NCBI RefSeq assembly: GCF_000516985.1
Contig: NW_006917098.1
Location: 1,984,001-2,048,000, forward strand
DNA length: 64,000 nucleotides
Direction of reading: 5' to 3'
From: Pestalotiopsis fici W106-1
Lineage: Eukaryota; Ascomycota; Sordariomycetes; Amphisphaeriales; Sporocadaceae
Below are positions 5,501-35,200 of the stretch, piece by piece; the stretch's first letter is position 1, and each line of letters opens with the position of its first letter. Position numbers and translations under genes: made by a program. A model generated the notes under the pieces. That model ran no database searches, had not been told where the DNA came from, and was given only the letters and a program-made list of their open reading frames with translations.

Positions 5501-8311
5501 TGCTCTACTGCCATGATGTAGCCAATTCCTGACCATGTATGGTAGTGCTCCCTTTTCTTTGAGATGCTGAGCTTCTGGGTCTGAATCAGAATCTGATTCA
5601 TATTCCTCTGAATCCTCATTGTCTTCGGTTGAGGTATCTTCATTATCATAGCCTTGACTATCCGCCTCAGACTCTGTTCCATCGTCCGAATCATTGTCGT
5701 CATCACTGTCGGTATTACTTGCAATGCCAGCTTCTGAGCCTTGATCTTCCGCATCAAGATCTTCGGAAGGAAGTGGATGCTCTGTTTCTGGAAAGCCGAA
5801 CTTGTCTTTCAAGTACGCCAATGATCTTAATGACAGGAGACCATGTTGTCTCGCTGTTTCCTGAGCTGATAGTCCAAGCAACTCTTCACAACTGTCGACG
5901 AGGTGTTGCTTCACTGCACTATTCATGAAGCCCACCTTGTCTTTCATGAGTACAAGTGGCCTGCACATTTCAATCAACTCCCTGATTTCTTGGTCATGGT
6001 ATTCAGATCCATAGCACAAGACAGCAAGTTCAGCTAGGGTCGGCTCCTCGATGGTAAGTATGAGAGCTCGAAGCATCTCCTCGATATTTTCCCTCTGCTC
6101 TCCTGACAATCTAAAAATTCGAAGCCACGCGTTCTTGAGTAAAGCACTGAGCTCATTTGGCGTCTCTTCGAGAACTCTCCGCACTCGGACATCACTTTCA
6201 GCCTCGGGTAGCTCTTCGAGTTGGAGACAGGCAATGTCTATCCAGGATATGTTCTGCGCCCTTTCACCGATCAGGCTATGAGCAAACCAAGCAAGAGCGT
6301 TGTTGTACTTCTTGGTGTCTTTCAGCTGGCCCACCTTACTTCTGGCGTGTATCTGCAGTGATTTTGCGAATTGGCTGCCAAACCTTTGGTCTTCTAGGTT
6401 GATGACTCGAAGGCGCTCGAGACTTAGGGCTTTTTGGATTGCGTATGTTGGACGGCTTGTAATGAGCCATTTTGCCATGATCCGGCCAGGTACCATGATT
6501 TGACCGTCATCAAGCTCAAGACTCAATAAGTTCAATAGCTTGAGTGTGGAATCAGAGTCCTCTGGAAGCAGGTGCAGGTTGCTCAAGACAATGTAGACAC
6601 GGTTGCCTGTAAACTCATCGGCAAGAATGCCTTGTAATGCCTTCCACAGGTTCTCCACACTAGGCGTCGCGCGTGACTTGGGCGCCCCTCCATTCTTGAC
6701 CTTCTCCTTGACAAAGTCTTTGGCGTGGGTCGCCAGGACTTTTTGCTGATCAATGAGTTGCCAAATTATGGATTTGAGACAATCCTCGGCGGAGCAGTAG
6801 TCCGTTCCTGCGACGCACAAGAAGTACGCAAACAGAACTGGTTCACCGTCCTCTTGTTTCTCAACAAGATTCTCCACGTCAGACAGAGCGGCGAGCATAG
6901 CACCTGTCTTGCCCCTGCCCTCTGGGGCCCGGATCCAGAGCCCGTCGACCTTTGCGGCTTCACTTTCGTCCGTCTCCGTCTTCTCAACATTTGCGAGCCA
7001 TTCGACATAGTCAGGCTCCTGAGAAATAAGAGCCGATTCCTTGAGCCTCTTGGTCAGCCCTTTTCGGATGCTGTCAGGCTGTAGTCGTGTACCATCAAGC
7101 GCACCCCTTACACTCTTGAAAGCAGGCCAATCTATACCGCGTGCGGAACCCAATCGATTTTTCGCTGTCTTCTTGGCACCGTGAATTATCCGTTTCAAAC
7201 GACCTTCGACCATGTTCCACCGTAGATCTTTGGCGCTATCAAACTTGACAAGGTTTCTGTGGTTGCTTGCTAGACCTTGATTTGGCACGTCACCCTCAAA
7301 TATTGCAGAGTCCCGACTGACAAACTCTGCAATGTCCTTGGGTGTGTAGCGCTTGGCGAGACCAAAGGGATCGGGTAGGCGGGCCATTTCGGCCAAGTCT
7401 GTAGTCTGCTCTTCCCAAAAGCACAAGAGTTCGATTCTATACTCTGTCTTGGCAGCAACTCGTCTGAACTCGTCTCTTAATTCTTGAAGTGCGCTGTTAC
7501 CGGGTTTCAACATGTCCATTAATTGTGATTGGTGGGCCTTGTTGAACTTTTCTGCATAGTAGGCAAACACTACAACGCTCTGAGTTAGTGATCATTCCAC
7601 GTGTACACCAAAGTACAGCGCATTTTTGAGTTCAAGGTGATGCTAAGGATGCACCTTCACTACAAGAAGATGAACATCCACTAAACGGGGTAGGCAAGTC
7701 GAGACACGTGGATTAACTCACTGGATCCCCAAGCGGCGGCCGGAGCTCCTTTGAAAGGCGTGCCAAAGAACACTGCGGCCGAGGTGGCCTCCAACATGAC
7801 TGGGAAGTTCTCTTGCTGCGCGTTCATCATTGTGATGGCTTTAGCAATCACCAAGCCACCCATGCTATGGCCAATGAAGACAATCGGTCTCTGTTTACAC
7901 TTTTCTCGTTTGGCTTTGAGAGCACAGAGAAGCGTCATGGATATATTTTCCATGGATTGAAATGGAATTTTGAGTCGACCTTGCCATGCAGACTCGTACA
8001 TGAACAAGAGAATTCGTGCTTTTGGGAAATTTGCACGAATTCCGTCTGGACTTTCCATCCAATTCCAGTCACCTTTGGTTGCTTTCCAACTTTCTAACGG
8101 ATGAGCTGCCAGTCCAGGGACAAAGACAATACTGACAGCATTAGCCAATATGCTTTCGATTGAGGCCGTAATCATACTCAATGCTTGATTTTTGGTTATC
8201 ATTTTCAGCCGGATATACCACTTTCAGGCCTTGCTGAACATCGTCATATTTTCTGACTCGATCGCTCGCGCCGACTGGCCGCTTTTGGGTGCTTTCACGT
8301 CGCAAGGACAT
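2530..8311 (-). CDS. NLR-type receptor: alpha/beta-hydrolase, NACHT-like, ankyrin repeats, proline-rich tail
   Basis: Five exons on the minus strand (8311-8178, 8131-7722, 7569-5258, 5194-4440, 4393-2530) give 1824 aa. The ATG at 8311 starts MSLRRESTQKRP; splicing the 46-nt first intron joins SSI to DIVFVPGLAAHP, the usual opening of fungal lipase-like NLR effector domains. The serine-hydrolase elbow GHSMGGLV places the nucleophile near Ser134. The nucleotide-binding region has a usable Walker A (APEGRGKTG, about residue 396-404), but the Walker B position reads VYIVLSNLHLL, without the acidic residues. A strongly acidic Asp/Glu/Ser linker (about residues 820-900) precedes at least ten ankyrin-type repeats, for example TPLHLAAENGHIGV and TALIAAAAS. 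The last 250 residues are rich in Pro, Gln and Ser, with tandem PPRL units. The inferred role is a self/non-self sensor whose hydrolase domain is the effector. Trigger and substrate are unknown. Confidence 0.88.
2884..2950. repeat. 12-bp tandem repeat encoding LPPR units
   Basis: About five copies of a 12-bp unit (plus-strand form gcggcggtaaac) sit in the last exon of the large receptor. The unit is a multiple of three, so gain or loss of copies keeps the frame and only changes the number of PPRL motifs in the proline-rich tail. Copies toward the right end carry single-base changes. Confidence 0.85.
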
Positions 8312-15651: not shown

Positions 15652-18600
15652 ATGAGGCTTCGACTCGAGAGCCCAAACCTTTACACTATCGCATGGATAG
15701 CCGCTCTCCCCATCGAACGAGCGGCGGCAACGGCGTTACTCGACGATCGTCATGACGCGCCTGAAGGCTTCCACCAGCATTCATCCGACGAGAACTCCTA
15801 TACCTGGGGCCGAATAGGCGAGCATAACATCGTGATCGCCTCACTCCCCGCTGGAGTCTACGGACTTGCATCCGCTGCGACGACCGCACTGGACTTGATC
15901 CGTTCGTTACCCTATATCCGAATCGGTCTGCTAGTGGGCATTGGGGGAGGCATCGCTCGGCCTGATGCGGGACAGGACATCCGCCTTGGCGACGTCGTCG
16001 TCAGCCAGCCTGACGGTACGACCGGAGGGGTGGTACAGTATGACCTAGGAAAGGCGAAAGCGGGCGGCACGTGGGAGCGAAAGGGCTCTCTAGATAGACC
16101 ACCTCTCGTACTTCTCAATGCGCTGGCAAGTCTACAGGCGGAGCATGAGTTCGAACCGTCCAAGGTACCAGATCTGCTCCGAGCAATGTTGGAAGCCAAG
16201 CCTTCTATGAGACGGCCAAAAAGCGACTATACGTATCAGGGGGCTGAGAATGATCGACTTTTCGAATCGCAACACGACCATATTGGCGGCAGCAACTGTG
16301 ATAAGTGCGACCCGACCTGGGAGGTGAAGCGTGACCCGCGAGAGTCGACTGAACCAGAGATTCACTACGGGATCATTGCCTCTGGTAATAAACTCGTCAA
16401 AGATGCAGCTACTCGAGACGGTCTTTCGGGAGACACCGGACATCAATGTCTGTGTGTGGAGATGGAAGCAGCGGGCCTGATGAATCGGTTTCCATGCCTG
16501 GTGATACGTGGGATCTGTGACTACGCGGATTCTCACAAGAACGATCGGTGGCAGCGATATGCGGCTGCTGCGGCGGCAGCGTTTGCAGTAGAGCTGCTCG
16601 GGTTTGTCCCGGCTAGAGAGCTTGAAGCAACAGAAAAGGTCGCTAAGGCCATACAAGCACGTTAGTACCCACGATATCAAACACTTCAAAGATGTTCAGT
16701 CATTAACCATATTGTAGTGAAACAGAAAGTGGACACCGTTGGGTAAGCTTCAATTGATGCAACTTGGATACCATTATTTACGACTCCTCATAGCACCTTC
16801 ATTCGGAAAGTCGACCATGGCATTACTTTGGATCGTCTACCGGTTGTAGAAGAGGCCTCTTTCGACTCTCACGCTGAAGCACACAATCCAACATGCTTAC
16901 CAGGTACCCGGGTGCAGTTACTTGAAGACATTTCTCATTGGATCGACAGTCCCAACTCGAAGACGATATTTTGGCTTGATGGTATGGCAGGGACTGGGAA
17001 GTCAACTATATCGCGTACTGTTGCTCAGAGACGACACGAGCGTGGTGATCTGGGTGCCAGTTTCTTCTTCAAAAGAGGAGAGATCGATAGAGGGAACCTC
17101 ACTAAGCTGGTGCCTACTCTAGCTCGTCAATTAGCCTCGAGAATCTCGGCAGTTGAGTTTGCCGAAGCCGTTAAAAAAACACTCGTTACCGATCCAGAGA
17201 TTATCAGGAAAGCTGTCGCTCAGCAGTTCCAGGAATTGATCCAGGAACCTCTTTCAAAAGTGGAGCCAACAAACACGACACCATTATCATTGGTCATTGT
17301 CATCGATGCTCTGGACGAGTGCGAGGGCCAAGCCGACATAGAGCTGCTTATCGAACTCTTGTCTGGTGTACGCTCCACGTCCTCCTTATATGTTCGAGTC
17401 CTTGTTACTAGCAGGCCCGAGCTACCAGTGCGTCTTGGATTTCGTCATTTCAACGACGATAGTGACTATCGATACCTGCAGCTACAAAAAATCCCATCAT
17501 CGACTATCGAGCTCGACATCTCTGTATTTCTTGACTATGAATTTGCTAACATTTGCAAACGCTTTAACTCTTGGGCGAAAGAAGAGTTGCGATTGCCAGC
17601 AAATTGGCCTGGAGAAGCTGACTTGAAGACACTCACTATTGCGGCCTCGCCGCTCTTCATCTTTGCCGCAACGATTTGCCGTTTCGTAGAAGACTCGTAT
17701 CTCGGTGATCCGCGGGACCTACTTCAGAAAGTACTCGAAACTACGAGCAATTTACATACCTCGAGACTTGCCAAGACTTACTCGCCGGTTCTGGAACAAC
17801 AAATTATCAACAAGTCAGAACTTGAGAGACACGAAATTATCAAAAGCTTCCGCCTTGTAGTTGGCACCATCATCACGCTTGCAGACCCTCTATCTCAGCG
17901 GGTTTTAGCATTGCTTCTTGACGTCGATGTTCGGAAAGTAGCGGCAAGGCTCGAGGTTTTGCGTTCCGTTTTGGACGTTCCAGACAGTCTTGACTTGCCG
18001 GTACGCTTGTTGCATCTGTCATTCCGAGATTATCTGGTCACAGAAGAGAGTGAGTTTCGAGTGAACGAAGAACTCACCCACCAAAACTTGGCCATAAACT
18101 GCTTGCGTATCATGCATGGCAGTCTGAAGGAAAATATCTGTGATCTGCCATTTCCTGGTGCATGCCGATCCGAGTTGGACAGTCAACACATCAAGAGCTG
18201 CATACCCCCAGAGCTACAGTATGCTTGTCTTTACTGGGTGCATCACCAAATTGCTGCGAAGCATAATTCAGATAATTATCAACAGATTGATGACATTTTG
18301 AAAAACCATCTCCTCCATTGGCTTGAAGCGATGTGCTTGATTGGTCGCTCTGGAGATATTCTTGATATGTTTGGAAAGCTAGCGATCTGGCTAGAGGTAA
18401 AGACCGTCTGGGACCCTGGGAGCGGATCTGGCTGACCATGAATAGGAGAGAAACCGCCAGGAGCTTCTAGCCTTTGTCAATGATGCGATTCGATTTACCA
18501 GAACGACCGTTTTGGCGATAGACGAAGCACCGTTACAGATCTACTCGTCGGCCTTGGCCTTCGCACCTAGTAAGAGTCTCGTCCGGCAATCATATGACAA

Positions 18601-20635
18601 AAACGTGCCAAGCTGGCTCTCGGTATTGCCACAGGTCAAGGAAGATTGGGACGCGTGTCTTCTGGTGATAGGATGCCGGGAGAGAAACAGAACAATAGCG
18701 TTCTCAAACGATTCGACGATGATAGCATCGGTCCCTGATTCTCTTCCCGGCACGATAAAGATCTGGAATACGCAGACAGGGAAATGCCGGAAAGTGCTAG
18801 AAGGACACCGCGGCTTCGTGCATTCTGTGGTATTTTCGTATGATTCAACAACGGTGGCATCAACCTCCAACGACAAGACTGTACGAATCTGGAACACAAA
18901 AACAGGGGAATGCGAGCAAATCTTGGAAGGTCATAGTGATATCACCAACTCCGTGGTATTCTTGCATAATGTTCAAACGGTAGCATCAGCCTCCTGGGAC
19001 AAGACAATACGGATCTGGAATATACCAACAGGTGAGTGTAAGCAGGTGCTGGAAGGCCATACCAACATAATTATGTCGGTGATGTTCTCGCACAACTCGA
19101 ATAAGATTCTTTCGGCTTCTTATGATCATACCATACGGATCTGGAACGGACAAACAAGAGTCTGTGAGCGAGTGCTAAAGGGCTACAACAATTGGGCACA
19201 CCCAACAGTGTTTTCCTATGATTTGAAGATGGTGGCGTCAGCGTCAGCATCTCATGGCAGTATAGTGCAGATCTGGAATATGCAGACAGGGGAGTGTGAG
19301 CAAGCACTAGAGGGTCATAGTGGTCGAATCACCTCCGTGGCGTTCTCGCATAACTCGCGGATGGTAGTATCTGCTTCGTCGGATGACACGATTCGGATCT
19401 GGAACACACGGACATGGAAGTGTGAGCAGGTTCTCAAGGCCCACAGCTCTACTATCACATCCGTGGCATTCTCTCACGACTCGAGGATAGTGGCATCGGG
19501 CTCCTTCGACAACACCATCCGGATTTGGGATGTACAAATGGGGAAAAGCGAGCAAACACTGGTTGGCCATAAGCGCCCAGTTTGGTCGATAGCGATCTCG
19601 CCCAGCTCGGAGATGGCAGTATCCGCCTCATACGATGGAACTTTACGGATTTGGAACACGCAAACGGGGAAGTGTGAACAAGCACTAGACGGCCATAGTG
19701 AAATGGTCAAGTCAGTGGCATTCTCACATAATTCGATGATGGTAGTGTCGGCGTCTTCCGATCACACAGGACGGATCTGGAATACACAATCCGGGAAGTG
19801 TGAGCAAGTACTAGAGGGTCATACCAGCGAACTTGTGACAGCGGTTTTCTCACATAATTCTAAAATGGTGGCATCGGCTTCTTTCGATAAGTCAGCACGG
19901 ATCTGGAATACGCAAACGGGGAAATGTGAGCAAGTGCTTGGTCACAGCGAAGGGGTCAGATTAATTGTGTTCTCGCACGACTCAAAGATGCTGATTTCGG
20001 CTTCTGCTGATTATATGCTACGGGTCTGGTGTACGCAGACTGGAAAATGCGAGAAATTATTTCAAGGTCATACTAGCGATATCACATCGGTGGTGTGCTC
20101 GCATGACTTTCAGATTATGGCGTCTGGTTCTTATGATAAGACAATACGCATTTGGGACACACAGACGGGGGAGTGTAAGCAAACTCTCGAAGGTCATACC
20201 GGTAAAGTTATGTCAATAATATTATCGTACGACTCAGAGTTGGTAGCATCAGTCTCTCGAGATACAACGGCAAGAATCTGGAGCACGAAAACCGGGAGGT
20301 GTGAAGAGATTCGCTACGTGGATACCTGCTCAATTTCAGATGTCTTCGAGCCTTCTAGCTGGAACGTTGTCGTCGATGATATTTTGTCTTCCTCGACCAA
20401 CCGTCCTGCATTTTTCGAATCTAAGACACCTTCCCAACATGCAAAGGATCTGAAACTTGGTTTGCGTAATGGTACCTGGATTACGCTGGAGGGAAAAAAC
20501 TTGCTTTGGATTCCTGCAGATTTTCGCGAATTTCGCCAAAAGGTTGCTATCTATGCAAACACAGTTGCGATAGGTTATAGGTCAGGAAAAGTTTTGCTGT
20601 TAAGGTTCTCAGCGGCACAAATAGCAAAATTGTAG
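15652..20635 (+). CDS. NLR-type receptor: PNP_UDP, NACHT, 13 WD40 repeats
   Basis: Four exons, 15652-16660, 16718-16742, 16794-18396 and 18446-20635, giving 1608 aa. The N-terminal 330 residues are a nucleoside phosphorylase-like domain: YTIAWIAALPIERAAA, LVGIGGGIARP, VEMEAAGLMN and GICDYADSHKN are visible. A tiny 25-nt exon links it to a NACHT domain with an intact Walker A (GMAGTGKST, about residues 408-416) and Walker B (LVIVIDALDECEG). The C-terminal half holds 13 WD40 units of about 42 residues, most with the pattern SVAFSHNS, then S.D.TIRIWNTQTGKCEQ.LEGH. This is a known fungal NLR design in which WD repeats sense a ligand, NACHT oligomerises and the N-terminal domain is the effector. 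Pathway and ligand are unknown. The alternative of a plain WD scaffold is unlikely given the intact NTPase motifs. Confidence 0.93.
18690..20330 (+). repeat. Tandem array of about 13 WD40-coding units
   Basis: Units of about 126 nt, each coding one WD40 repeat, follow one another within the last exon. The protein pattern is strongly conserved (RIWNTQTGKCEQVLEGH in many copies), while DNA copies differ at scattered positions, so recent whole-unit homogenisation is partial at most. Confidence 0.8.
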
Positions 20636-22433: not shown

Positions 22434-24419
22434 TTATTGGATATCAAACCACTTGACCTCCAAGTTGTGACGCTGGATTATTTCCAATAAAGGTTCGTTG
22501 GAAATATTGTCAACATAACAACTTGCAAGATGAACCCAGTCGTCTATCTCTCTCCTCAAAAGGATAGGAGATCCACAGCCGTTCATTAGACATAGTGTGT
22601 CGCCGATTCGCGCGCCAACCCTGGTGATGCCGCCATACCCCATCGCCGTCTTGAACAAGCAACAGCCCTTTGTTTTGATCCTTAATTCCATTCTCAGCTG
22701 GTACATGATTGGTCCTATCATTTCTAGCGACTTTGATTGATTGCTATCAGCACCCAATAAACGCGAATCGGAGGAAAGAGCCGCTATAATGTCCTCATCA
22801 GACGAGTGTGCAGCCATGGATTTCACAAGGAGTAATAATTCTTCCAGGGGGAGCCCTGTACTCATGTAAGCACTCAGCTGTCCTGCAAACTGCAACCCGC
22901 CCCAGATCATGGTCGACAAAAATATAAGCTCAAAAGCGTGAGTAGGCCAAAGAGCAGGACTGAATTGGGACTTAAGATCGTGCATGGCTGGGCCTTTGAA
23001 GTATTCCAGAGGCGCACTATCGTCCAGGGTTAAGCATTGTGTAATAGTGTCACAGAGAGCCCCTCGGATCTTCAAGACGCCATTTTCGAAACATTGGTGC
23101 CTCGCGTCATCGAAATAGCAAGTGCGTTTTGGTAGGAAATCAACGGAAAACTGATCTTCAGAGGATGCATTGTTGAAATCAGGTAGCCAATACGGCAGCC
23201 TATGAGGATTGGTCTCTCTCGTTAGTGCCCCGGCATTGGCCAGCGTCGAACTCAGAAATTTATCTGAAGGCTCGTTCCGAGAAGCAGGATCCGTCTTAGA
23301 GAATACAGCGCTGTACCAATCCAGATATACTTGCCGAACTGACAATGTATAGTCCACTCTAATGTCCAGTGGAAGAATGCCTAGTGTGGCATACATCATA
23401 TCCCGAGGATCCGATGCTTTGCAGTCCATGTGCAGCAGAAATATCTGAGATGAACTCATACCTCCAGTTCCAGAGTGTCGATGCGAGATCATAATTTTCC
23501 GCAATTTTTGTATTTGTATTGCGAGTAATATATCGTTTTGCTTCAAGGTGGCCCAGACCTCGGGTGCTATTGCTGCTGGCTTCAAGTCGGTAACCTCCGA
23601 GTGACGCAGCATGGCCGTCGTCAAGCGGCAGAATGCATATAATGCTGTCGCCGTGACTGTCGAATATCCGCAGATGAACACATGGCAATCGATTCGATCG
23701 CTAGAAAGAATCATTTCTTGATACACCCATATGCGACTCCAGTACTCAAGTCTGTTGAGAGCGAATATCGCTGACCACGTTGGGTTGAGCTGGTGTATTG
23801 GAGTATTATTCCATTGTTCACACAGTTTTGGCGTCTCGCTGACTACGCGAGTGAATTTTGCGACCATTTGGGGACTCAAGTCAACACCAAGAGCCTGGTT
23901 TTGATGATACATTGTCTCGCCTTCTTCCGCATCCATCTTCGTCATGATTTCATTAATGATCGCAATCGCATGCGGCGTGGAAATATCCTTTGGTCCTGCC
24001 ACCCAGCTGTAAACAAAAGTGGCCTGACTGTACACGTCTCCCATCATGCCGACCTGGTGGCGCCTCTCGTCCAGATCTCTCTGGTTGATACAGAGCGCGT
24101 CCACCCAAATGCGCAGCTGCTTGCCGTTGCCACGGTTCATGTGATTCCCCCGAAAGTGCCACAGCGCCGAAGCGAGGTTGCGTGTGACGTCACGGACCTG
24201 GCCATTGATCACGACGCGATCGACACACTCGGCGTCGTAATCGCCCCAAACGTACGAAAGTGCAACGTATTCTGGTTCCTCCAGCAGTGAAACCGTCTCC
24301 AGCTGGCCGCGCACCACTTCGCTCGGATCGAAGGTTTGTAGCACCGTCAATAGTCGGATTTGCTTCCTGTCTCTGTCCAAACCTTCTCCGTACAAGGTTG
24401 TCTCGGCGGCGGATGTCAT
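22434..24419 (-). CDS. HET-domain (heterokaryon incompatibility) protein
   Basis: A single exon of 661 codons from the ATG at 24419. The HET domain lies in about residues 50-200: YVALSYVWGDYD, then VTRNLASALWHFR, then LRIWVDALCINQRDLDERRH and QATFVYSWVA. The rest is an alpha-rich region of unknown fold seen in many such proteins (a middle block MLRHSEVTDLK, then LHMDCKASDPRDMMYATLGI, and a C-terminal region beginning RIGDTLCLMNGCGSPILLR). HET domains are cytotoxic effector modules that trigger death of fused cells carrying different alleles. This copy has no NACHT or repeat domain of its own, so it may act downstream of another sensor or be an orphan. It is convergent with the WD40 receptor gene. 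Confidence 0.93.
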   Translation of the reverse strand: MTSAAETTLYGEGLDRDRKQIRLLTVLQTFDPSEVVRGQLETVSLLEEPEYVALSYVWGDYDAECVDRVVINGQVRDVTRNLASALWHFRGNHMNRGNGKQLRIWVDALCINQRDLDERRHQVGMMGDVYSQATFVYSWVAGPKDISTPHAIAIINEIMTKMDAEEGETMYHQNQALGVDLSPQMVAKFTRVVSETPKLCEQWNNTPIHQLNPTWSAIFALNRLEYWSRIWVYQEMILSSDRIDCHVFICGYSTVTATALYAFCRLTTAMLRHSEVTDLKPAAIAPEVWATLKQNDILLAIQIQKLRKIMISHRHSGTGGMSSSQIFLLHMDCKASDPRDMMYATLGILPLDIRVDYTLSVRQVYLDWYSAVFSKTDPASRNEPSDKFLSSTLANAGALTRETNPHRLPYWLPDFNNASSEDQFSVDFLPKRTCYFDDARHQCFENGVLKIRGALCDTITQCLTLDDSAPLEYFKGPAMHDLKSQFSPALWPTHAFELIFLSTMIWGGLQFAGQLSAYMSTGLPLEELLLLVKSMAAHSSDEDIIAALSSDSRLLGADSNQSKSLEMIGPIMYQLRMELRIKTKGCCLFKTAMGYGGITRVGARIGDTLCLMNGCGSPILLRREIDDWVHLASCYVDNISNEPLLEIIQRHNLEVKWFDIQ

Positions 24420-26327: not shown

Positions 26328-27284
26328 ATGGGTTCTTTCATCCGCTGCACCTTTCGAAAATGCGCAATCTTTCTGACACTTATAACCATCGTTTCCACCA
26401 TTATCCATCAGTTAAGCTATCTGGAGCTGAATGATGTAACAGACACGATCAAACTCCTGGATAAATGCAATGCCAAAGGAGCTACCCAGCTTGATGATTA
26501 TCACACAATCATGAGCCGTAGCATCCCAGATACGATTCATCAAATTTGGAAGATCACCGACACTACTACGTACTCTTCGCAAGCGTCAAACACATTCTGG
26601 CAGGACAACTTCGGCCCCCTGAATTACACAGTAACACTGTGGACGGATCAAGAAATTCAGCACCTCATAGAATCCGAATACACTTGGTTATTATCGACGT
26701 ACAAGGGATACACACAAGACATTCAGAGAGCAGACCTTGGTAGACTTGTGGTAGTTCACGCTAAAGGAGGAATATACGCAGACCTGGACGTGTTCCCTAG
26801 GAATCCTACTGCGATCGACTGTCTTCGCCGGTCCGGGACACAAGCTATATTCAGCCCTACCTCCAGCAACTCAGGCTTTAGCAACCACTTTTTCATGGCC
26901 GAGAAAGGTTCGATGTTCCTGTATGAGACGCTACGCACAGCCAAACAGCGTGGTGGCTCACATCATAGGCGGATATTGCTCCCATACCTGCAGGTGTTCT
27001 GGTCGACCGGACCGATCATGGTGACGGCGGCGTTCCGGCAATACTGGATTTTACGTGATGCGCCAAGAGACGAGGTGGCACTGCTAGATCATGAGTTCAC
27101 GAAGAGGATGGTGGGACACGCCGCAGGAAGGTCATGGCACAGTGCAGATGGAGTCTTTCTCAATGAGTTTGCCGACCACATCAAGTTGATAGAAACATGG
27201 GTCATCTGGTCTGTCGCAACCATTACGCTGGGAATAGTGGTTGTGAAGACGTGTCGGCTTCTCAAAAGGGGCTTTCCATTATAA
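26328..27284 (+). CDS. Membrane-bound glycosyltransferase of the DXD (OCH1/SUR1-like) type
   Basis: A single exon of 318 codons. After a short basic N-terminus there is a signal-anchor helix (CAIFLTLITIVSTIIHQL, about residues 12-29). Then come IPDTIHQIWK, the entry motif of the Gly_transf_sug family, and DLGRLVVVHAKGGIYADLDV, with the metal-binding DXD as DLD. A second hydrophobic stretch near the C-terminus (WVIWSVATITLGIVVV) suggests two membrane passes. Family members transfer sugars, often mannose, to glycans or to inositol phosphoceramide in the Golgi. Acceptor and donor cannot be read from the sequence. The gene is flanked in direct orientation by two decayed repeat copies, so it may have been moved or duplicated with them. 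Confidence 0.85.
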   Translation: MGSFIRCTFRKCAIFLTLITIVSTIIHQLSYLELNDVTDTIKLLDKCNAKGATQLDDYHTIMSRSIPDTIHQIWKITDTTTYSSQASNTFWQDNFGPLNYTVTLWTDQEIQHLIESEYTWLLSTYKGYTQDIQRADLGRLVVVHAKGGIYADLDVFPRNPTAIDCLRRSGTQAIFSPTSSNSGFSNHFFMAEKGSMFLYETLRTAKQRGGSHHRRILLPYLQVFWSTGPIMVTAAFRQYWILRDAPRDEVALLDHEFTKRMVGHAAGRSWHSADGVFLNEFADHIKLIETWVIWSVATITLGIVVVKTCRLLKRGFPL

Positions 27285-28045
27285 GGCAAAAATCATTCGG
27301 TCAACCATTCGAATTGTTAATTGATTAATGTTACGCGCAAGTTTTAGTAGAAGATGCCCTTGACCCCTGCAATATAGCTGAGCCAGGAGTCGGGGATAGC
27401 TGTGAAGGTGCGGCACAGCGGTACCGCCGCCTATTTCCATCTTACCAGGAGGATGTTTGCTTAATTCAGTATAGTCGCATGTAGAGAATTGCTTTGGAAT
27501 CGCAAGCTCGTGCGATATCCGCACACTCGGGCAGATGATCATTGGAACGACAGTAAATAAAGTCCCATGATGGGGGCATTGTGAGTCGGACGGATAGTAT
27601 CGATGAATAGGTAACAAACGTTTTAGTACACTACAATCTATTTTAGGAGCAGTTAAACATTTATAATAAAGAATCATATATACCTATGCGTCTCAATCGA
27701 TTATCTAATCCCATGTGATTTTGCCGCCTTGCAAGTCTTCCTGGGTAAAAAAAAAAAAAAAAAAAAAAAAGGAAAAGGAAAGATTTTTTTCTGATTATTT
27801 ATGACAGATGTTAGGATCGTGAGCGCTTGTGCAGCTGACTGCAGCTGTCCTCGCGGCCCCTTTTCCAGCCCAATAGTACTTCATTCTTTTTACAAGGGTT
27901 CGTATCGGTAACAATTACCCCGCTCAGGTACAGTCAGAGTACGTGATTTGCATCTGAAGAAAGGTGTAAGGCTGTCTGTTGATTGACGCGGAGCTCGGTG
28001 ACGACTTCAGGCGCTGAGTGTGCTGGCAGCGGTGTCTGTTGAAAT
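27285..28045. other. Intergenic with repeat copy 2
   Basis: 761 nt between the glycosyltransferase gene and the S8 protease gene. It contains the second copy of the dispersed repeat, with an A-rich insertion. A 132-codon minus-strand frame at 27279-27677 has no clear domain and is probably not a gene. The promoter of the protease gene must lie in the right part. Confidence 0.4.
27696..27880 (-). pseudogene. Decayed repeat copy 2, related to 25344-25499
   Basis: This stretch aligns by eye with the minus-strand remnant at 25344-25499 (shared gattatct.atcccat.tgatt.., gccgccttgcaagtc, atgacagatg, aggatcgtgag, gcagctg, cagcccaata). It is broken by an insertion containing 24 consecutive A residues at 27747-27770 and by an in-frame stop where copy 1 reads tryptophan-aspartate. 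Substitutions include several C/T and G/A changes, as repeat-induced point mutation would leave, but other changes occur too. Confidence 0.65.
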
Positions 28046-30921
28046 ATGGCGACAATATCCTCCTTGCAGCTGGCCATTGACGTATCTAAAGTTCTTCAGC
28101 AGATTACACAGTATTTGCAGACAAACTCCCAGTTCGATCCGTTCTGCGCTAGACTTCAGATCATACTTGATCAGATTATCCCAAAGCTTGAGAATCTCCA
28201 GAGCAATGAGAATTATGAAGTTTCAGGACTACTCAGTGGGCTTGAAGCCCTTTGCGAGGTACCTTTCTTTGATAGCCCTTCTTCTAGGTCCGAAATACCA
28301 AATCCTTTGATACTAATTGTTCACCACTGTAGTTTGCTAGCATTTCAGAGAATTCCAGCGCCCAGTATCCGGCTCTGGAGCTTGTTCTGAAAGATCGTGA
28401 CTATGCCACCACTGCCTTTCGAAACTTGGCGCATAACAGACCACATAACAATCAGAGGACGAAGCTGGTGACTGAAGTCGAGTCTTTTCTGTCTCAATCT
28501 TCTGATGATGACAAAGCTGGAGCTATGCCGTCTCATGCCGACATACAAGAGGCCAGTGGAACTCTCTTGGGATGTGGCAAAGAGCTTGTGGTTTTGCACG
28601 GAATACTGTCCACCTATTGTCGATGCGCTCCGTCGGAGAATGGAGACAGCAAAATGGTTGCTCAGTTCAGGTTGCGCAATAAAAAGCAAGAGAATGATGA
28701 TACCAACGTATCCTTCGGCATGCTCTTCATGGCACATCCCCACCAAGACGAGAGTGCAGCTGGGCTTCAACCTTGCTGGCAAGATACGCATATTTGCATG
28801 CGACGAACTGTGTTTGTCCTCTGATGCCTCATGGGAAATCAGAAACATGCTAACAAAACTTGGAGAAAATTTTTAGGAAACAAGCATACCGATGGCATAG
28901 AGATTCAATCGGACTCGGTCGACTCCTTTTGCAACTACATCTCAGATCAACTTCAATCTGGTCCAACCTTGCTGCATCTATCGGTTGCGAACAAGAGGCT
29001 GTACTTTGAACAACACAGTGATCAGGAAACACAGTGGGTGATTAATCAACCCAGCGTTTCTTTGGGCCAATTGCTGGATATATCATCTCATTCCACAGAC
29101 GGGATAACCGGAAAGCAAAAGGAGGTCCTGTCTTGGCTGCTAGCCAAGGCAGTGTGGCAATATTACAACTCGCCTTGGATGGCTCAGCCTTGGACTAAAC
29201 AAGATGTGCATTTCCTCGGTGAACGACGGCCCAACCCCAATGACATCGCAAATGACATTGCGGGTATTTATGTCAATGAGCCCCTGCTCTCGGTTTCAAT
29301 CTCCGCAAGTACACTGAAAGGGAAAATGCCCAGCTTACCATCGTTGAGGTCACTGAGACACAAGATCCCCAAGATCCTTGGCCTTGGCATCATGCTTGTC
29401 GAAATCCAGCTTGGGCGTCCGATTGAAGATTTACATACAGAGGATGAATGGCTCAAGCACTGTCTTGGGGGGAGGCCACATCTCAACACCAATTACCTGA
29501 TTTGCAGAGATTTGATTGGGAAGCCAGGGTTCTTCCATGATATCGCGTACCCCTTAGAAGATCTTATCCGGCATTGTATCAACCCTCAAAAAGTCTTCCT
29601 TCCAGTTGCTCGCAATGATGAAGACGTCCAACAGGCCCTACATGATCTCGTAACCGCGCTTGAGGGCTACATTACCTATACGAAACCTGATAATGTCAAG
29701 CCCCTGAACTTGCCAATCTCGCCAATCTCAAGCAAGTCAAGCATTTTAGAGCCTCGTGATTCGAGGCAGTCCTTACTGCCAGTCGGGAATCATTTCTGTA
29801 CTGCACCGCTGCCAGCAAAGAGAACAGCGGAGTGGCCTCAGGGCCAAACGATGGCACAGACGTTAGTCACTGTTCAAACTCGTATCTCTGGCGCGCCAGA
29901 TGCTGACATGATATAGACATGGGGGCTCTTCAGGCTGGTTCGAGCGAATGAACAGCCTCAATTATATCCTTGGCCGCGCTCCTAACGAGTCTTATGAAAA
30001 GGTTCGCATTGCAGTCCTTGATACGGGCGTTGAACCACGCAATGCCGTGGCAGATTATCTTGCCGGGTATAAGGACTTTGTCTGTAAGGGCGACAAGAAG
30101 CAAGATGAGAGCGGGCATGGAACGACTACTCTTGAATTGATTTTCAACATGTGCGGACCTGCTGATGTGTACGCTCTGAGAGTCTTCAAAGCAGATGAGG
30201 CGGACAAGGGGACTCGAAAACTTACGATTGAGGTAAGTCGAACTAAGTTTGCAGCCCAAAGGGATATTGTCTTGGTACTTACACCGTTATCCCGCAGGCC
30301 ATTAAATGGTGCATAGACAACAATATTGATGTCATTTGCATGGCTTGTGGTTTCTATGGTTTTGACCAAGCCCTATACGACGTGATCAAAGAAGCGTCTC
30401 GCAAGCTACTTATTTTCGCTGCTCCCACGAATGTGGGCAACGCGGGTGAAATCACATATCCCGCCAAGCATCACCAAGACGTATTCTGCATGCTATCCAC
30501 AACGGCCGACGTCAGATTGTCCCAGCTCAATCCGACACCCTCCTCACTACGTGGTAGCTTTGCGATAATTGGCGAAAATATTAGGACGCCTGACGGCGGA
30601 GAGAACTCCGGCACGTCACTTTCGACGGCCATTGCCGCTGGACTTGCTGGGCGGCTGCTCGACTTCGCAAGACACCACGCCTGTCAAGGGGCAATTGGCG
30701 ATTTGATGCCTCGCATGCAACTCAAAGATGGTATGAGCAAGATATTTGAAGCAATGTCGATACGTGATGGGATATTTCTATGTCTGAAGCCCTGGCAACT
30801 CCTGCCAAAGACGATGAGAGACCAGGTTCCTTTCAAAAATGTGGATTTTTCCAGTGAAGAAATCAGGAAAGCGAGAAGCGAGATCTGTCGGGACATCTGC
30901 AAATGTCTGGAAGAACTGTAA
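28046..30921 (+). CDS. Subtilisin-like (S8) protease with DUF7580-like N-terminal region; HET-Q2-like partner of the gasdermin gene
   Basis: Five exons, 28046-28258, 28333-28811, 28866-29861, 29917-30232 and 30298-30921, giving 875 aa. In-frame stops at 28822 and 29914 fall inside introns with proper donors, branch sites and acceptors. The first 560 residues resemble fungal DUF7580 proteins: an alpha-helical start, then LVLKDRDYATTAF, FGMLFMAHPHQD with CWQDTHI, and KILGLGIMLVEIQLGRPIE. The C-terminal third is a peptidase S8 domain with all key residues: Asp598 in AVLDTGVEP, His630 in ESGHGTTT, Asn713 in AAPTNVGN and Ser775 in SGTSLSTAIAAG. There is no signal peptide, so it should act inside the cell. 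It lies tail to tail with the gasdermin-like gene. In Podospora the subtilisin-like HET-Q2 cleaves and activates the gasdermin-like HET-Q1; the same role is inferred here. The helical part would be the sensing or regulatory half. Confidence 0.88.
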
Positions 30922-30983
30922 GACAAGGTATCTGTCATGATATCAGTTCCTCATATATACACGCCCAAATATGAGAATAATGG

Positions 30984-31920
30984 TCAAAGTCCGTCTATTG
31001 TGACAAAGAACTGCTGTTCGGTGCCATTCCAAATCTCAAACATTTGTGCATCCTGGAGGCCTTCTTGGGCTAGAACAGATACGATATCCACATCGTCTGG
31101 CCGAGGCGCCATTACTGAACCCAATTTTCCTCGCGGTTTCACAGTCTTGACGGAGAGGTCGGAATCGAAGATTCCTGTGGACACTTCGCTCAGTCGATAT
31201 GCCCAGACAAAGTCTGTCTTGAATTGGCCGGTAATTGTGGCTTCTCTTTCGTCTTTAACTTTGGTCGTCACCTCTAATGTCGCTGAGGTTGGTACATCAC
31301 TGTTGAGGAGGAAAAATTGTCAGTAGAGCTCGGAAATCCTCGTCGATAACCAGATATGTGACTCACAGACCAGGGCCAGCTCCCTGTTGCGCTTTCGCAG
31401 TTGAATGTCTCTCACGCGTTGCGCCACGAGCAACCATCAATCCGCTAATCATATAAATTTTCCAGGCACCCAGTGTCTTGTTCTTGTCTATCCATGCTTT
31501 CAGCTCAGATGACTGCCGACACTGTTCAAGATAATGTATCGTCGGTTGTACAATGTATGTTTCCATATGGTCGACGGTCCACTCGCTGCCCATGATGCGT
31601 GTGAATGCCACACCTGCTTCAGCCTTGATGCTCATGCCAATAGCAGATGCAATAGGCACACTAGCATTGCCAGACAGTTCGAGGCCTTTTTCAGTCCTAT
31701 TGGAGAAGCAAAAGTCTGCGATTTCAGTACGAAGTATACGCATGTCGCGTGGGAATGGAAATACACCGCCTGTGTTGATCACATTGTCAATCTTCTTGGG
31801 TCCCGGGATGAAGTGACCCAATCGTACAGGGCCCTCAGCCTCACCGAAAGCCATGCTCTCATGCTTGTACTCGGGGGCAGGGTAGTGCGTCTGGCGCAGT
31901 ACAAACCAGCACTTCTCCAT
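30984..31920 (-). CDS. Gasdermin-like pore-forming protein (HET-Q1/RCD-1 type)
   Basis: Two exons on the minus strand, 31920-31367 and 31299-30984, giving 289 aa, close to the size of known fungal gasdermins. The start is MEKCWFVLRQTHYPAPEY, followed by RLGHFIPGPKKIDNVIN and an Ala/Gly/Ile-rich strand region (NASVPIASAIGMSIKAEAG). Then come a helical stretch (LEQCRQSSELKAWIDKNK), the strand KIYMISGLMVARGATRE, a strand after the intron (SATLEVTTKVKDE) and TDFVWAYRLSEVS. This order matches the pore-forming half of gasdermins as I know the family. About 60 residues follow the last conserved strand; in HET-Q1 a short C-terminal tail is removed by the partner protease. Regulated cell death by membrane permeabilisation is inferred. 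The reading frame shows no break. It is convergent with the S8 gene and divergent from the C2H2 gene. Confidence 0.8.
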
Positions 31921-32254
31921 TCCGGATTGTGACTAGAGGTTCTTATTCTGGATTTGGCTCAGAGTATGTCGAAATTAAAGTTTTGCCCTGATTTTTGGTC
32001 TGATGGCAGCTTATTCATTCTTGCATTCCATATGTGTTTATACAGCGATAGGACATGCAGGGTGGGGCTTACCCCGCCCGCCTGCCATATTACGGCTCAG
32101 GGCTGATCACACGTGAGATATTCGTTTCTTTTTGCGCCTTGTTTCCTTTCTACTGTTCTACTTCTCCTGAAGGGCCCAGCCCGGAATCATCAGAAGATTC
32201 TTGACATTATTTGTCCATGAAAGCACTCACGAGAAAGAGCGATCGACCTTCACC
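31921..32254. promoter_or_regulatory. Divergent promoter of the gasdermin-like and C2H2 genes
   Basis: 334 nt between the two start codons (31920 minus, 32255 plus), so both promoters must share or overlap this gap. A tcacacgtga stretch near 32107-32116 holds an ACGTG core. Co-regulation is inferred from spacing only. Confidence 0.45.
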
Positions 32255-35200
32255 ATGTCTCACTCAAAGGAAGGCGAGCTCGGGCCCCACTATAACGACA
32301 GCGGCTATACGCAGAATAACCACATTGCTCCGGCAGTCCATCAACAGTTGCTGACGCCAGATTCTCCTCTTATACTGAGCAATCATGCCTCTCCCAACAA
32401 CACCTCGCTCACCCCGGCTGACTCTACGACCAGCTTGTACCTCGTGCCGAGCGAGTTTGGTGAATATGACTGGAGCAACGACGACCCATTCTTTGGTGCC
32501 AACTTTGACATCGATCGTGATCGTGGGACACCATCTTTCCTGGAAGAGCAGTCCCCTTTCAATTCGGGATCTCAGACAAGCTGGAAAGCGCCGCCCACAA
32601 GCGATCCTTCTTATGGGCAGCCTGATGCTCCTTCACCACAGGGACAAAGTGCTCAACAGGTCGAGCTAGATGCCGAGACAGATCCGCAGTCTTCCAATCC
32701 CGACAAGGCTGACTCCAATGACATTCGTCATAGAACCGAGGCATGCAAACATTTATTTGAAAGTTGCCAGACACTATGTAACGATGAGCGGGTTGATAGA
32801 CTGTGCGCCAAATTCCACTGGTGGTCATTAGGTATCGGGGCATCGAAACACGGCCATTCCTCATTAGACTATCGTGTTCGAACCCGAGAGGATATTCGAG
32901 ACAGAATTGTGGATTTGCTCGACATGCTCGCTATCTCGCTACAAAGCTGCATTAGTATCAGTAAGTCGACACAACATGTGCCCCAGGTGATCTTTTTGTC
33001 CATATTTCTTTTCTTCCAGTTTCCTCCTATTTTGACTCTCTCGTCCATTGAGCACAAACCAGACTGACATCGGCCACAACAGCAGCAGCCAGCGGAAAGG
33101 AGCAGATAACAATTACTGCCGGCTCTGATACTGAGCCCGATCATGGCCACTCTCGCCTTGAAGAGACCATGGACTACATCCGCTCTAATATAGATTATCT
33201 TCTAAGACTCTCTGCTGCGATTCGAAAGTCGGGGACAAAGTTCAGACACAAACATGTCGATGAGCTTCTGGGTGATGGGAAAGTTGATCTCAGAGAATTT
33301 GGAGACTATCTTAGAAACCTAATTCTTTTCGTCCCAACCCAGTTTGCCGTCGGAAATGGTAAGACTCCATGCCTTAGACTGATATACTTACGTGTCGAAC
33401 TGGTCTAATAGAACTCATATAAAGCACACCAGGCGTATCTTGAATATCCGCGGCGTTTAGGCCCGATACAGGAGCGACTCATACAAGCGAATCTCGTGCG
33501 AAGAAACCGATTTGATCACTATTACAAGATGTCCCTTAAGGAAGATGCCATGTCACTGATAGCCGGAGATAGTAGGGATCAAGGCTCAAGTCCACCGCGA
33601 AAAGTGCAAAAGTCTATCGGGGCCTTCTCGGTTGATCGATCTGCCATATCCTCCCGGACAGCCACTGAAATCGGTACCTTTGTAATGCCAGAGAAACCAC
33701 GCAGCCATCAAACGAAGTCAAGCAGCTCTCGAGTCTCTCGGAGTGTGCTCAAGCAAGACTATCCAAGGTGTCCAGTTACGGGAAAAGACTTTTGGTGTCC
33801 ATTTTGTGCGCAGCCACTCGACAGTTCTTACTCCGATCCAAAGAAAAACATGAAATGGCGGTACGATCTCAAACTCAATCCTGATATATCATGTCTAACG
33901 ACTATTAGTGGTCATGTCTCGGAAGATCTGAGCCCTTACACCTGTATATATCCAGACTGTGACCAGGCAGATGCCATGTACGTCACCACAGATGAATGGA
34001 GAAAACATCTCAAAAGTTGCCACAGTATGTCGCGTTGGATATGCGACATTTGCTGGCTTGAATCCAGTAGCCCTGGCGACTTCGAGTTCGACGAGGAGGG
34101 AAAATGGCGTGAACACAGCTTATCATGTCATTCTGGGGAGATTTCCGTTCAGGATCTCGATGATATCGCCGAAGAAAGCAAACGGGCGGTGGTACCTTCT
34201 ATCGCATGCCCACTGTGTTACGACAGCACAGTTCTTCTTCAGCCAGATGCCGATAAACATATCGCCAATCATCTACATTCCTTTGCCTTACAGGCTTTGC
34301 CTTGGACTGCCACTGTCCCTGATGATGAAACGAGAGCTTCCGATGGATCGAACACCGGAAGGCCCTTGTATTTTGAGGGTAAAGATGATCTTGCAGAGAT
34401 AGACTGGAGTGCACCATATATTCTTCAAGACCTTGCGCCTCTCCTAGATGAGTCTATTTCTCGTTGTCAACACCTATCTCGATCTATAGATTTCGAAAAG
34501 TTGCGTGATACTTTGAATAGTGTACTCGAAACACTTCACAACTTGAAACAATCCCTCTCATCCTTGAGTATTGCACAAGTTGGTGAAGCAGCTGATCCCA
34601 TGATCAGATTGAATACGATTTTGTCAAGGCATGATGACAACGAGTTTATTACTTCCGATATGCCAACACTTGAAATTCTCGGGGTCGACCTCGAAGAAGC
34701 ACATGGTTCCTTGCAGGTAATAGTAACGAAATCGTCCATGAAAGCAGCTATTGAGACGGACGCCACTGAGACTACACCCCCTGGCAAATAGCGAGAACCA
34801 GACTTGCAGTCCACTCAGTACAATATAGGATGGAGCCAAAACACGGATACGGCTTCATACTCGGACGAATCAGCCGCAGTCATATTCAACGATGCCAGAC
34901 TTGAAGTTCCTTATCCTTCAGATTCGGGCTACATATCCAGCAGGGCATACAATTCAACAAATTCAGGCTCTGATCTTCCAGGGCCATCCTCCGGGTCAAG
35001 GTATGTTTTCTCTTTCAAAGTCTGGCTGTAGTAGATGAGACCCTGATATTTTCCAGGCCGGGTTTTCAGCAGCTTTTAGAACATTCCAATCGGAGATCGT
35101 TTCGCTGTAACTCATGCGAAAGGACGTTCCGGACTCGTATGGATCTCGAACGTCACAAGCCTACACATGATCAATGGCTCGAGGGTCAAAGGGTTGAAGA

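What the first reader, a model, noticed from the sequence alone, without database searches (positions are those of the whole stretch)
28046..31920. Tail-to-tail S8 protease and gasdermin-like gene: a het-Q-type cell-death pair
Seen: an S8 domain with Asp, His, Asn and Ser catalytic motifs complete, and 62 nt away on the opposite strand a 289-aa protein whose motif order fits fungal gasdermins. Known: in Podospora anserina the subtilisin-like HET-Q2 cleaves the gasdermin-like HET-Q1 to cause incompatibility death, and many fungal gasdermin genes sit beside protease genes. Inferred: this locus is a complete, intact allorecognition or immunity module of that type. Such pairs are described as a class; this instance and its control are what would be new.
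Basis: partly seen in the sequence, partly recalled or inferred. Interest (0 to 1): 0.93.

Follow-up and report, generated by a model that had tools for sequence, protein, structure and literature searches.

The report
Fungal gasdermin, protease and zinc-finger trio
A tea-endophyte fungus carries, side by side, a predicted pore-forming cell-death protein and the protease likely to switch it on, a known kind of fungal suicide module, and next to them a zinc-finger gene whose relatives keep turning up beside genes of the same kind.

Summary
The window is from Pestalotiopsis fici W106-1. 28046-30921 (+) encodes an 875-aa protein (PFICI_11319) with an S8 protease (D598, H630, N713, S775 intact); 62 nt on, 31920-30984 (-) encodes a 289-aa fungal gasdermin (PFICI_11320; RCD-1-1 E 2e-41). 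Such clusters are a described class (Q2-L), so the pair is a new member. It is not a het-Q locus: het-Q1 and het-Q2 are alternatives at one locus and HET-Q2 is 388 aa, whereas here both genes sit on one chromosome and the protease has a DUF7580 domain. Allorecognition is untested. Each of the 7 gasdermin loci found in this genome has an S8 gene within 4 kb; 6 of these proteases carry DUF7580, and all 6 have a zinc-finger relative within 6 kb. Genome-wide, 13 of 14 zinc-finger relatives lie within 6 kb of a DUF7580 hit (0.10 expected). Three consecutive locus tags repeat the trio in Apiospora. I propose a three-gene sensor-protease-pore module. Cleavage is inferred from a hydrophobic residue 41 residues from the gasdermin C-terminus (HET-Q1: 40).

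The parts
28046..30921 (+). Protease gene PFICI_11319, 875 aa; exons 28046-28258, 28333-28811, 28866-29861, 29917-30232, 30298-30921
   Evidence: Spliced translation identical to P0023; intron 2 (28812-28865) keeps the WQDT stretch that most aligned relatives share
28669..29448 (+). DUF7580 match (residues 184-425; interrupted by intron 28812-28865); possible inactive kinase-like fold
   Evidence: Pfam PF24476 E 8.8e-22; hhalign against kinases P 3.2e-5 and 6.2e-5; predicted order of strands and helices
29999..30663 (+). Peptidase S8 match (residues 591-790; interrupted by intron 30233-30297)
30616..30618 (+). Catalytic Ser775 codon (Asp598 30020-30022, His630 30116-30118, Asn713 30430-30432)
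   Evidence: Codons checked; conservation
30984..31920 (-). Gasdermin gene PFICI_11320, 289 aa; exons 31920-31367 and 31299-30984
   Evidence: Spliced translation identical to P0001; RCD-1-1 E 2.1e-41
31110..31112 (-). Met248 codon, predicted residue before the cut (P1); 41 residues follow, net charge -7
   Evidence: Alignment column: F in 12, Y in 1, M in 1 of 14 full-length sequences; codon checked
31921..32254 (.). 334-nt interval between the gasdermin and zinc-finger start codons (divergent genes)
32255..34791 (+). Zinc-finger gene PFICI_11321, 782 aa; exons 32255-32960, 33083-33358, 33425-34791
   Evidence: Model; spliced translation identical to P0080; association with DUF7580 hits

Best explanation
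This is a resident, intact cell-death module of a filamentous fungus. Shown by sequence: PFICI_11319 is an S8 protease with a predicted N-terminal helical region and a DUF7580 domain, PFICI_11320 is a fungal gasdermin with a short acidic tail, and PFICI_11321 is a C2H2-type protein whose relatives in this genome lie by DUF7580 genes. Inferred mechanism: the gasdermin is held inactive by its roughly 41-residue C-terminal tail. When the DUF7580 part of the protease, perhaps together with the zinc-finger protein, detects a cue such as non-self contents or a virus, the S8 domain cuts the gasdermin after Met248. The N-terminal 248 residues then assemble into plasma-membrane pores and kill the cell. 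The role of the zinc-finger protein (sensor, bait or regulator) is the least certain step.
For: Gasdermin homology and fold. S8 triad intact and conserved. Pair conserved elsewhere by consecutive locus tags, PG984_016383/016384 and ACMFMG_006025/006026, and by contigs of identical length, 68829 and 7502. Each of the 7 gasdermin loci found in this genome has an S8 gene within 4 kb. Protease and gasdermin identities covary over the 7 pairs (Mantel r 0.73; 9 of 5040 permutations reach it). Hydrophobic residue 41 from the end, against 40 residues removed from HET-Q1 (PMC10989679). Zinc-finger relatives within 6 kb of a DUF7580 hit in 13 of 14 loci; PG984_016382/016383/016384 is the trio in a row.
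Against: No expression, cleavage or pore data. The window protein has Met where 12 of 14 sequences have Phe, plus a 4-residue insertion just before it. The zinc-finger link to this pathway is genomic only: 6 of the 14 zinc-finger loci lie by DUF7580 hits with no S8 nearby (two of the six read as L055, L056), and one gasdermin pair (C3) has neither DUF7580 nor a detected zinc-finger gene. In Thozetella the only zinc-finger relative listed is on another contig than the pair. Outside P. fici, 7 of 21 gasdermin hits share a contig length with a zinc-finger hit and 14 do not, though several of the 14 are on contigs too short to tell.
Confidence: 0.72

Rival explanations
1. An allorecognition (heterokaryon incompatibility) locus of het-Q type: strains differ at it, and fusion of unlike strains brings a protease allele and a gasdermin allele together to kill the fusion cell.
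For: Same protein families as HET-Q1 and HET-Q2; a HET-domain gene lies at 22434-24419.
Against: Both genes occur together in one strain; het-Q1 and het-Q2 are idiomorphs and HET-Q2 is only 388 aa.
Confidence: 0.12
2. The zinc-finger gene is a transcription factor that only regulates the divergent gasdermin or protease promoter, not part of the death signal.
For: C2H2-type patterns at residues 501 and 589; divergent from the gasdermin or the protease in all 7 DUF7580-S8 loci by coordinates; 334 nt between start codons here.
Against: Some relatives are annotated with S8, NB-ARC, NACHT, HET or kinase domains; where scanned these lie downstream (S8 at 732-958 of P0105, NACHT-type at 627-798 of P0101, HET at 817-962 of P0116, NB-ARC at 795-989 of P0083), which fits a signalling protein better. 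Some may be gene-model fusions.
Confidence: 0.3
3. The neighbourhood reflects clustering of fast-evolving accessory genes, or duplication of one ancestral cluster, with no functional link between the zinc-finger gene and the pair.
For: HET and NACHT genes are mildly enriched around the 7 gasdermin loci (8 observed within 35 kb, 2.9 expected, p 0.018), so some general clustering exists.
Against: 13 of 14 zinc-finger relatives within 6 kb of a DUF7580 hit, 0.10 expected, and consecutive tags in other genera are too strong for general clustering. Duplication of one ancestral cluster was not modelled and would inflate this number.
Confidence: 0.12

Closest known systems
HET-Q1 / HET-Q2 of Podospora anserina (Clave et al. 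2022, PNAS; not held, known here through reviews PMC12881547, PMC10989679, PMC10197012)
   Same: Gasdermin of similar length (278 vs 289 aa) and an S8 protease; in HET-Q1 a cut 40 residues from the C-terminus, here a conserved hydrophobic position 41 residues from it.
   Different: het-Q1 and het-Q2 are idiomorphs and HET-Q2 is 388 aa; here both genes are linked in one genome, the protease is 875 aa with DUF7580, and a zinc-finger gene lies alongside.
Q2-L protease / fungal gasdermin gene clusters (the class of Clave et al., via PMC10197012 section 15)
   Same: S8 protease gene next to a gasdermin gene; multidomain protease. The reviews mention ANK, TPR, WD40, NLR and 'predicted kinase-like' partners.
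   Different: The word DUF7580 is in none of the held papers, though the same domain may be meant by 'kinase-like'. No held paper was found that describes the zinc-finger partner.
RCD-1-1 / RCD-1-2 of Neurospora crassa (PDB 8jyx, 8jyy, 8jyz)
   Same: Homologous over residues 1-239 (RCD-1-1 E 2.1e-41); same fold by Foldseek.
   Different: The RCD-1-1 alignment ends at residue 239, so the acidic tail of the window protein has no counterpart in it; RCD-1 needs two allelic variants, not a protease (PMC12881547, section 20).
Bacterial gasdermin/protease clusters
   Same: Protease gene linked to a gasdermin with a short inhibitory tail (reviews).
   Different: No significant Foldseek match of the window model to bacterial gasdermins (best E 0.3).

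Membership tests
Fungal gasdermin | Sequence homology to a characterised member over the pore-forming domain | tested here: met
   RCD-1-1 E 2.1e-41, RCD-1-2 E 8.3e-36
Fungal gasdermin | Gasdermin fold | tested here: met
   Top 14 Foldseek rows are all RCD-1 chains, E <= 1e-7; model confidence is low (mean pLDDT 48.9), so this rests mainly on sequence
Fungal gasdermin | Pore formation and killing | not testable with these tools
   Needs experiment
Q2-L protease/gasdermin cluster | Protease gene within 10 kb of a gasdermin gene | tested here: met
   62 nt between stops
Q2-L protease/gasdermin cluster | Intact S8 (or CHAT) protease domain | tested here: met
   D598 H630 N713 S775; Pfam S8 E 2.7e-11
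Q2-L protease/gasdermin cluster | Extra putative sensor domain beside the protease domain (often, not always) | tested here: met
   DUF7580, E 8.8e-22; that it senses anything is inference
Q2-L protease/gasdermin cluster | The protease cuts the gasdermin tail | not testable with these tools
   Only a conserved hydrophobic position was found
het-Q incompatibility locus | Protease and gasdermin are idiomorphs, one or the other per strain | tested here: not met
   Both adjacent on one contig; idiomorph statement from PMC12881547 section 20
het-Q incompatibility locus | Short protease, HET-Q2 388 aa | tested here: not met
   875 aa; 388 aa from PMC10989679
het-Q incompatibility locus | Allelic variation with incompatibility | not testable with these tools
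   One genome only
Protein kinase-like fold (DUF7580) | Profile similarity to kinases | tested here: inconclusive
   C-lobe only: Prob 72.6 and 64.7, P 3.2e-5 and 6.2e-5; best of 30 rearranged kinase profiles P 0.097
Protein kinase-like fold (DUF7580) | HRD and DFG catalytic motifs | tested here: not met
   H[RK]D[LIVM] in 0 of 31 (YRD occurs in 3 of 31); D[FLY]G, always DLG or DYG, in 6 of 31; none of these in the window protein. Places of these triplets were not checked.
Protein kinase-like fold (DUF7580) | Structural match to a kinase | tested here: inconclusive
   The S8 domain fills the PDB list; viral kinase rows at E 0.15 and 0.24 with rmsd near 28, not significant

The most novel reading that the evidence does not exclude
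DUF7580 (possibly an inactive kinase-like scaffold) and the C2H2-type zinc-finger protein form a general recognition core of fungal immunity. The core is reused with different outputs: S8 protease plus gasdermin in six or seven loci of this genome, a protein-kinase domain next to the fingers at C10, and NLR or HET domains in other fungi. The window would be one complete unit of that system.
Probability: 0.35. Interest if true: 0.82.

Novelty: new variant of a known kind. Interest (0 to 1): 0.55.

Why it matters
What activates the proteases that release fungal gasdermins is named as open in a review read here (PMC12881547, sections 20 and 21). A repeated third gene gives a concrete candidate for the missing input, and seven protease/gasdermin pairs in one genome would allow specificity tests (which protease cuts which gasdermin). 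A CRISPR/Cas9 system for P. fici has been published (PMC8539907, seen in the search listing with the start of its abstract), so single-gene removals look feasible.

Tried and rejected
My first protease model used a 123-nt intron (28754-28876); it was rejected because most relatives keep the WQDT stretch that it removes and the annotated protein uses 28812-28865.

het-Q-type idiomorph reading: rejected as filing. CHAT proteases: 4 hits in the genome, none near a gasdermin locus by coordinates.

C2 locus (L023): it has DUF7580, S8 and a zinc-finger relative, and a 299-aa ORF (5367-6266) in the gasdermin position, but this ORF did not match the gasdermin profile at E <= 1 nor any solved gasdermin. 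It is not counted as a gasdermin. The C9 gasdermin found no solved gasdermin by phmmer but scored 70 bits with a profile that did not include it and was matched by the C12 gasdermin at E 1.7e-27.

Kinase fold of DUF7580: the structure search of the whole protease was filled by subtilases; kinases were not among the 50 rows shown. In the viral library two of the first three rows after the seven proteases are kinases, at E 0.15 and 0.24, not significant.

Defence-island idea: HET and NACHT genes around the 7 gasdermin loci are enriched only mildly (8 vs 2.9 expected, p 0.018; 4 of 7 loci have any). All 150 HET rows and 133 of 150 NACHT rows were used (17 weak or fragment rows dropped); both lists are capped and so lower bounds (304 and 180 candidates); contig lengths of C4, C5, C7, C11, C13 and C14 were approximated there and small contigs left out of the null.

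Rows: 14 of 15 zinc-finger rows (one second exon dropped), 29 of 29 DUF7580 rows and 24 of 30 S8 rows (second-exon and other partial rows dropped). One of the 29 DUF7580 rows (C1:194926, 24.6 bits) is under Pfam's cut-off and is the partner of one zinc-finger locus; without it the count is 12 of 14. The weaker zinc-finger rows reach only E 5.1e-4 (C10). The chance model is uniform placement.

Sigma-70 and terminator scan: irrelevant to a fungus, not used. Annotated fusions of the zinc-finger protein to other domains may partly be gene models that merged neighbours; treated as leads.

Literature: Clave et al. 2022 is not held, so whether it describes DUF7580 or the zinc-finger neighbour could not be checked.
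Full report
Identity. The two proteins equal database entries PFICI_11319 and PFICI_11320 of Pestalotiopsis fici W106-1, a sordariomycete. The genome at hand has 51.7 Mb in 20 contigs; the window is C8:1984001-2048000.

Gasdermin. phmmer against solved structures gives RCD-1-1 at E 2.1e-41 over residues 1-239. The model is poor (mean pLDDT 48.9), yet its first 14 Foldseek rows are all RCD-1 chains and the next eight rows are bacterial and mammalian gasdermins without significance. All 22 proteins were aligned. In the 14 that reach the C-terminus, a position 41 residues from the end of the window protein is F in 12, Y in 1 and M (Met248) in the window protein. HET-Q1 loses 40 residues after F238 (PMC10989679, passages). 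The agreement in distance suggests the same cut, but the HET-Q1 sequence was not at hand. The 41-residue tail has net charge -7.

Is it het-Q? Reviews state that het-Q1 and het-Q2 are idiomorphs (PMC12881547, section 20), that HET-Q2 is 388 aa, and give the system as an example of a rearranged, constitutively active sensor (PMC10197012, passages). The window has both genes on one chromosome and a protease with room for a sensor. It therefore belongs to the Q2-L/gasdermin clusters, the class said to hold about 80% of fungal gasdermins. Allorecognition is not shown.

Paralogues. Searches of the own genome with three gasdermins find 7 loci: the window, C6, C3, C8 near 521 kb, C12, C1 and C9; the lists are lower bounds. 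Profiles of both families on fetched stretches show an S8 gene within 4 kb of each, the widest gap (3.8 kb, with the zinc-finger gene between) at C6, whose S8 was found by the profile and not by the Pfam search (C9 gasdermin confirmed at 70 bits by a profile that did not include it). Six of the 7 proteases have DUF7580 exons upstream on the same strand (these gene models were not checked further). C3 is a bare S8 with no DUF7580 detected, closer in layout to HET-Q2. Pairwise identities of the S8 exons and the gasdermins covary (Mantel r 0.73; 9 of 5040 permutations), as expected if pairs evolve as units. The catalytic Ser is kept in all 7.

Third gene. Next to the gasdermin, divergent from it with 334 nt between the start codons, is PFICI_11321 (782 aa). 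It has C2H2-type patterns at residues 501 and 589 but no Pfam match at E <= 0.01; some relatives carry PF26082 in the precomputed column. A search of the genome with most of its last exon gives 14 loci (15 rows, one a second exon; E for the 13 others 2.3e-32 to 5.1e-4). Thirteen of the 14 lie within 6 kb of one of the 29 DUF7580 hits; 0.10 is expected for uniform placement. One of those partners is under Pfam's cut-off; without it the count is 12 of 14. The exception, C9:1347745, is 18 kb away. All 6 DUF7580-S8 loci with a gasdermin have it, as does the C2 DUF7580-S8 locus, whose gasdermin is unconfirmed. By coordinates it is divergent from the gasdermin (window, C6, C8 near 521 kb) or from the protease (C1, C9, C12, C2). 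Six further zinc-finger loci lie at DUF7580 hits without a nearby S8 hit; two of the six were read: C6:1045000-1054900 (DUF7580 and zinc-finger gene divergent; no S8 noticed in the ORF list) and C10:2404500-2414400 (DUF7580, zinc-finger ORFs followed by a kinase domain, then a HET domain). The other four were not read.

Other fungi. Consecutive or near locus tags link the families: PG984_016382/016383/016384 (zinc finger, protease, gasdermin; Apiospora), PG990_013161/013162 (gasdermin, zinc finger), PG994_005194/005198 (zinc finger, gasdermin), ACMFMG_006025/006026 (gasdermin, protease; Clarireedia), RB595_010493/010495 (protease, zinc finger; Gaeumannomyces), CEP51_007264/007265 (DUF7580 without S8, zinc finger; Fusarium). 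Tags stand for position; the DNA was not seen. By equal contig length, 8 contigs, P. fici's included, hold a gasdermin and a zinc-finger hit (of 22 gasdermin hits), 8 hold a DUF7580 or DUF7580-S8 and a zinc-finger hit (of 52), and 4 a gasdermin and a DUF7580 or DUF7580-S8 hit; only the short ones (7502, 14048, 33677, 68829, 72981) speak for closeness by themselves. Against: in Thozetella the zinc-finger relative lies on another contig than the pair. Some zinc-finger relatives are annotated with S8, NB-ARC/TPR, NACHT or HET domains after the fingers; some may be merged gene models.

DUF7580. No held paper holds the word. Its predicted strands and helices follow the order of a kinase (my reading). 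hhalign against own-genome kinases gives P 3.2e-5 (9 sequences) and 6.2e-5 (11 sequences), C-lobe only, against P >= 0.087 for five other profile pairs and >= 0.097 for 30 rearranged kinase profiles. HRD followed by a hydrophobic residue occurs in 0 of 31 sequences, YRD in 3. Structure searches are inconclusive. I treat it as a plausible but unproven inactive kinase-like domain; a review already speaks of proteases fused to 'predicted kinase-like domains', so this part may be known.

Literature on the zinc-finger link. Searches 'gasdermin, zinc finger, C2H2, fungal, gene cluster, heterokaryon incompatibility' (at least 5 of 6, 14 papers), 'gasdermin, C2H2, ascomycete' (0 papers) and 'fungal, gasdermin, zinc finger, protease, cluster, allorecognition' (1 paper) listed no paper that, by title and start of abstract, describes it; none of these was opened. 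C2H2 fingers are reported in 34 Sordariales NLRs, and zinc fingers there are discussed as possible integrated decoys (PMC12258605, passages). The primary paper on Q2-L clusters is not held, so novelty of this part is provisional.

Verdict. The pair is real and ordinary for its class. The repeated third gene is the part worth following.

Noticed in passing
22434-24419 (-): 661-aa HET-domain protein gene (Pfam E 2.6e-27) about 3.6 kb before the protease gene.
   Followed up: partly
15652-20635 (+) and 2530-7570 (-): Two NLR-like stretches: PNP_UDP_1, NACHT-type and WD40 ORFs in a row; and ankyrin plus NACHT-type ORFs. With the HET gene and the trio, four immune-type loci within about 32 kb; enrichment over the genome is mild.
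   Followed up: partly
L017:3883-6036 (G000:C3:4207382-4209535): Bare S8 protease tail-to-tail with a gasdermin; no DUF7580 or zinc-finger gene detected; closer in layout to HET-Q2/HET-Q1 than the window.
   Followed up: partly
L023:5367-6266 (G000:C2): 299-aa ORF of unknown family in the gasdermin position beside a DUF7580-S8 gene; possibly a very diverged gasdermin or another output protein.
   Followed up: partly
L055:5186-8617 (G000:C10): Zinc-finger ORFs (weak match, E 5.1e-4) followed on the same strand by a protein-kinase domain (E 3.5e-18) with an HGDLKPEN stretch, beside a DUF7580 gene and a HET gene.
   Followed up: partly
26328-27284 (+): 318-aa DXD glycosyltransferase-like gene (PF04488, E 1e-10) just before the protease gene.
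   Followed up: no
27747-27770: Run of 24 A in the interval before the protease gene; could vary in length between strains.
   Followed up: no
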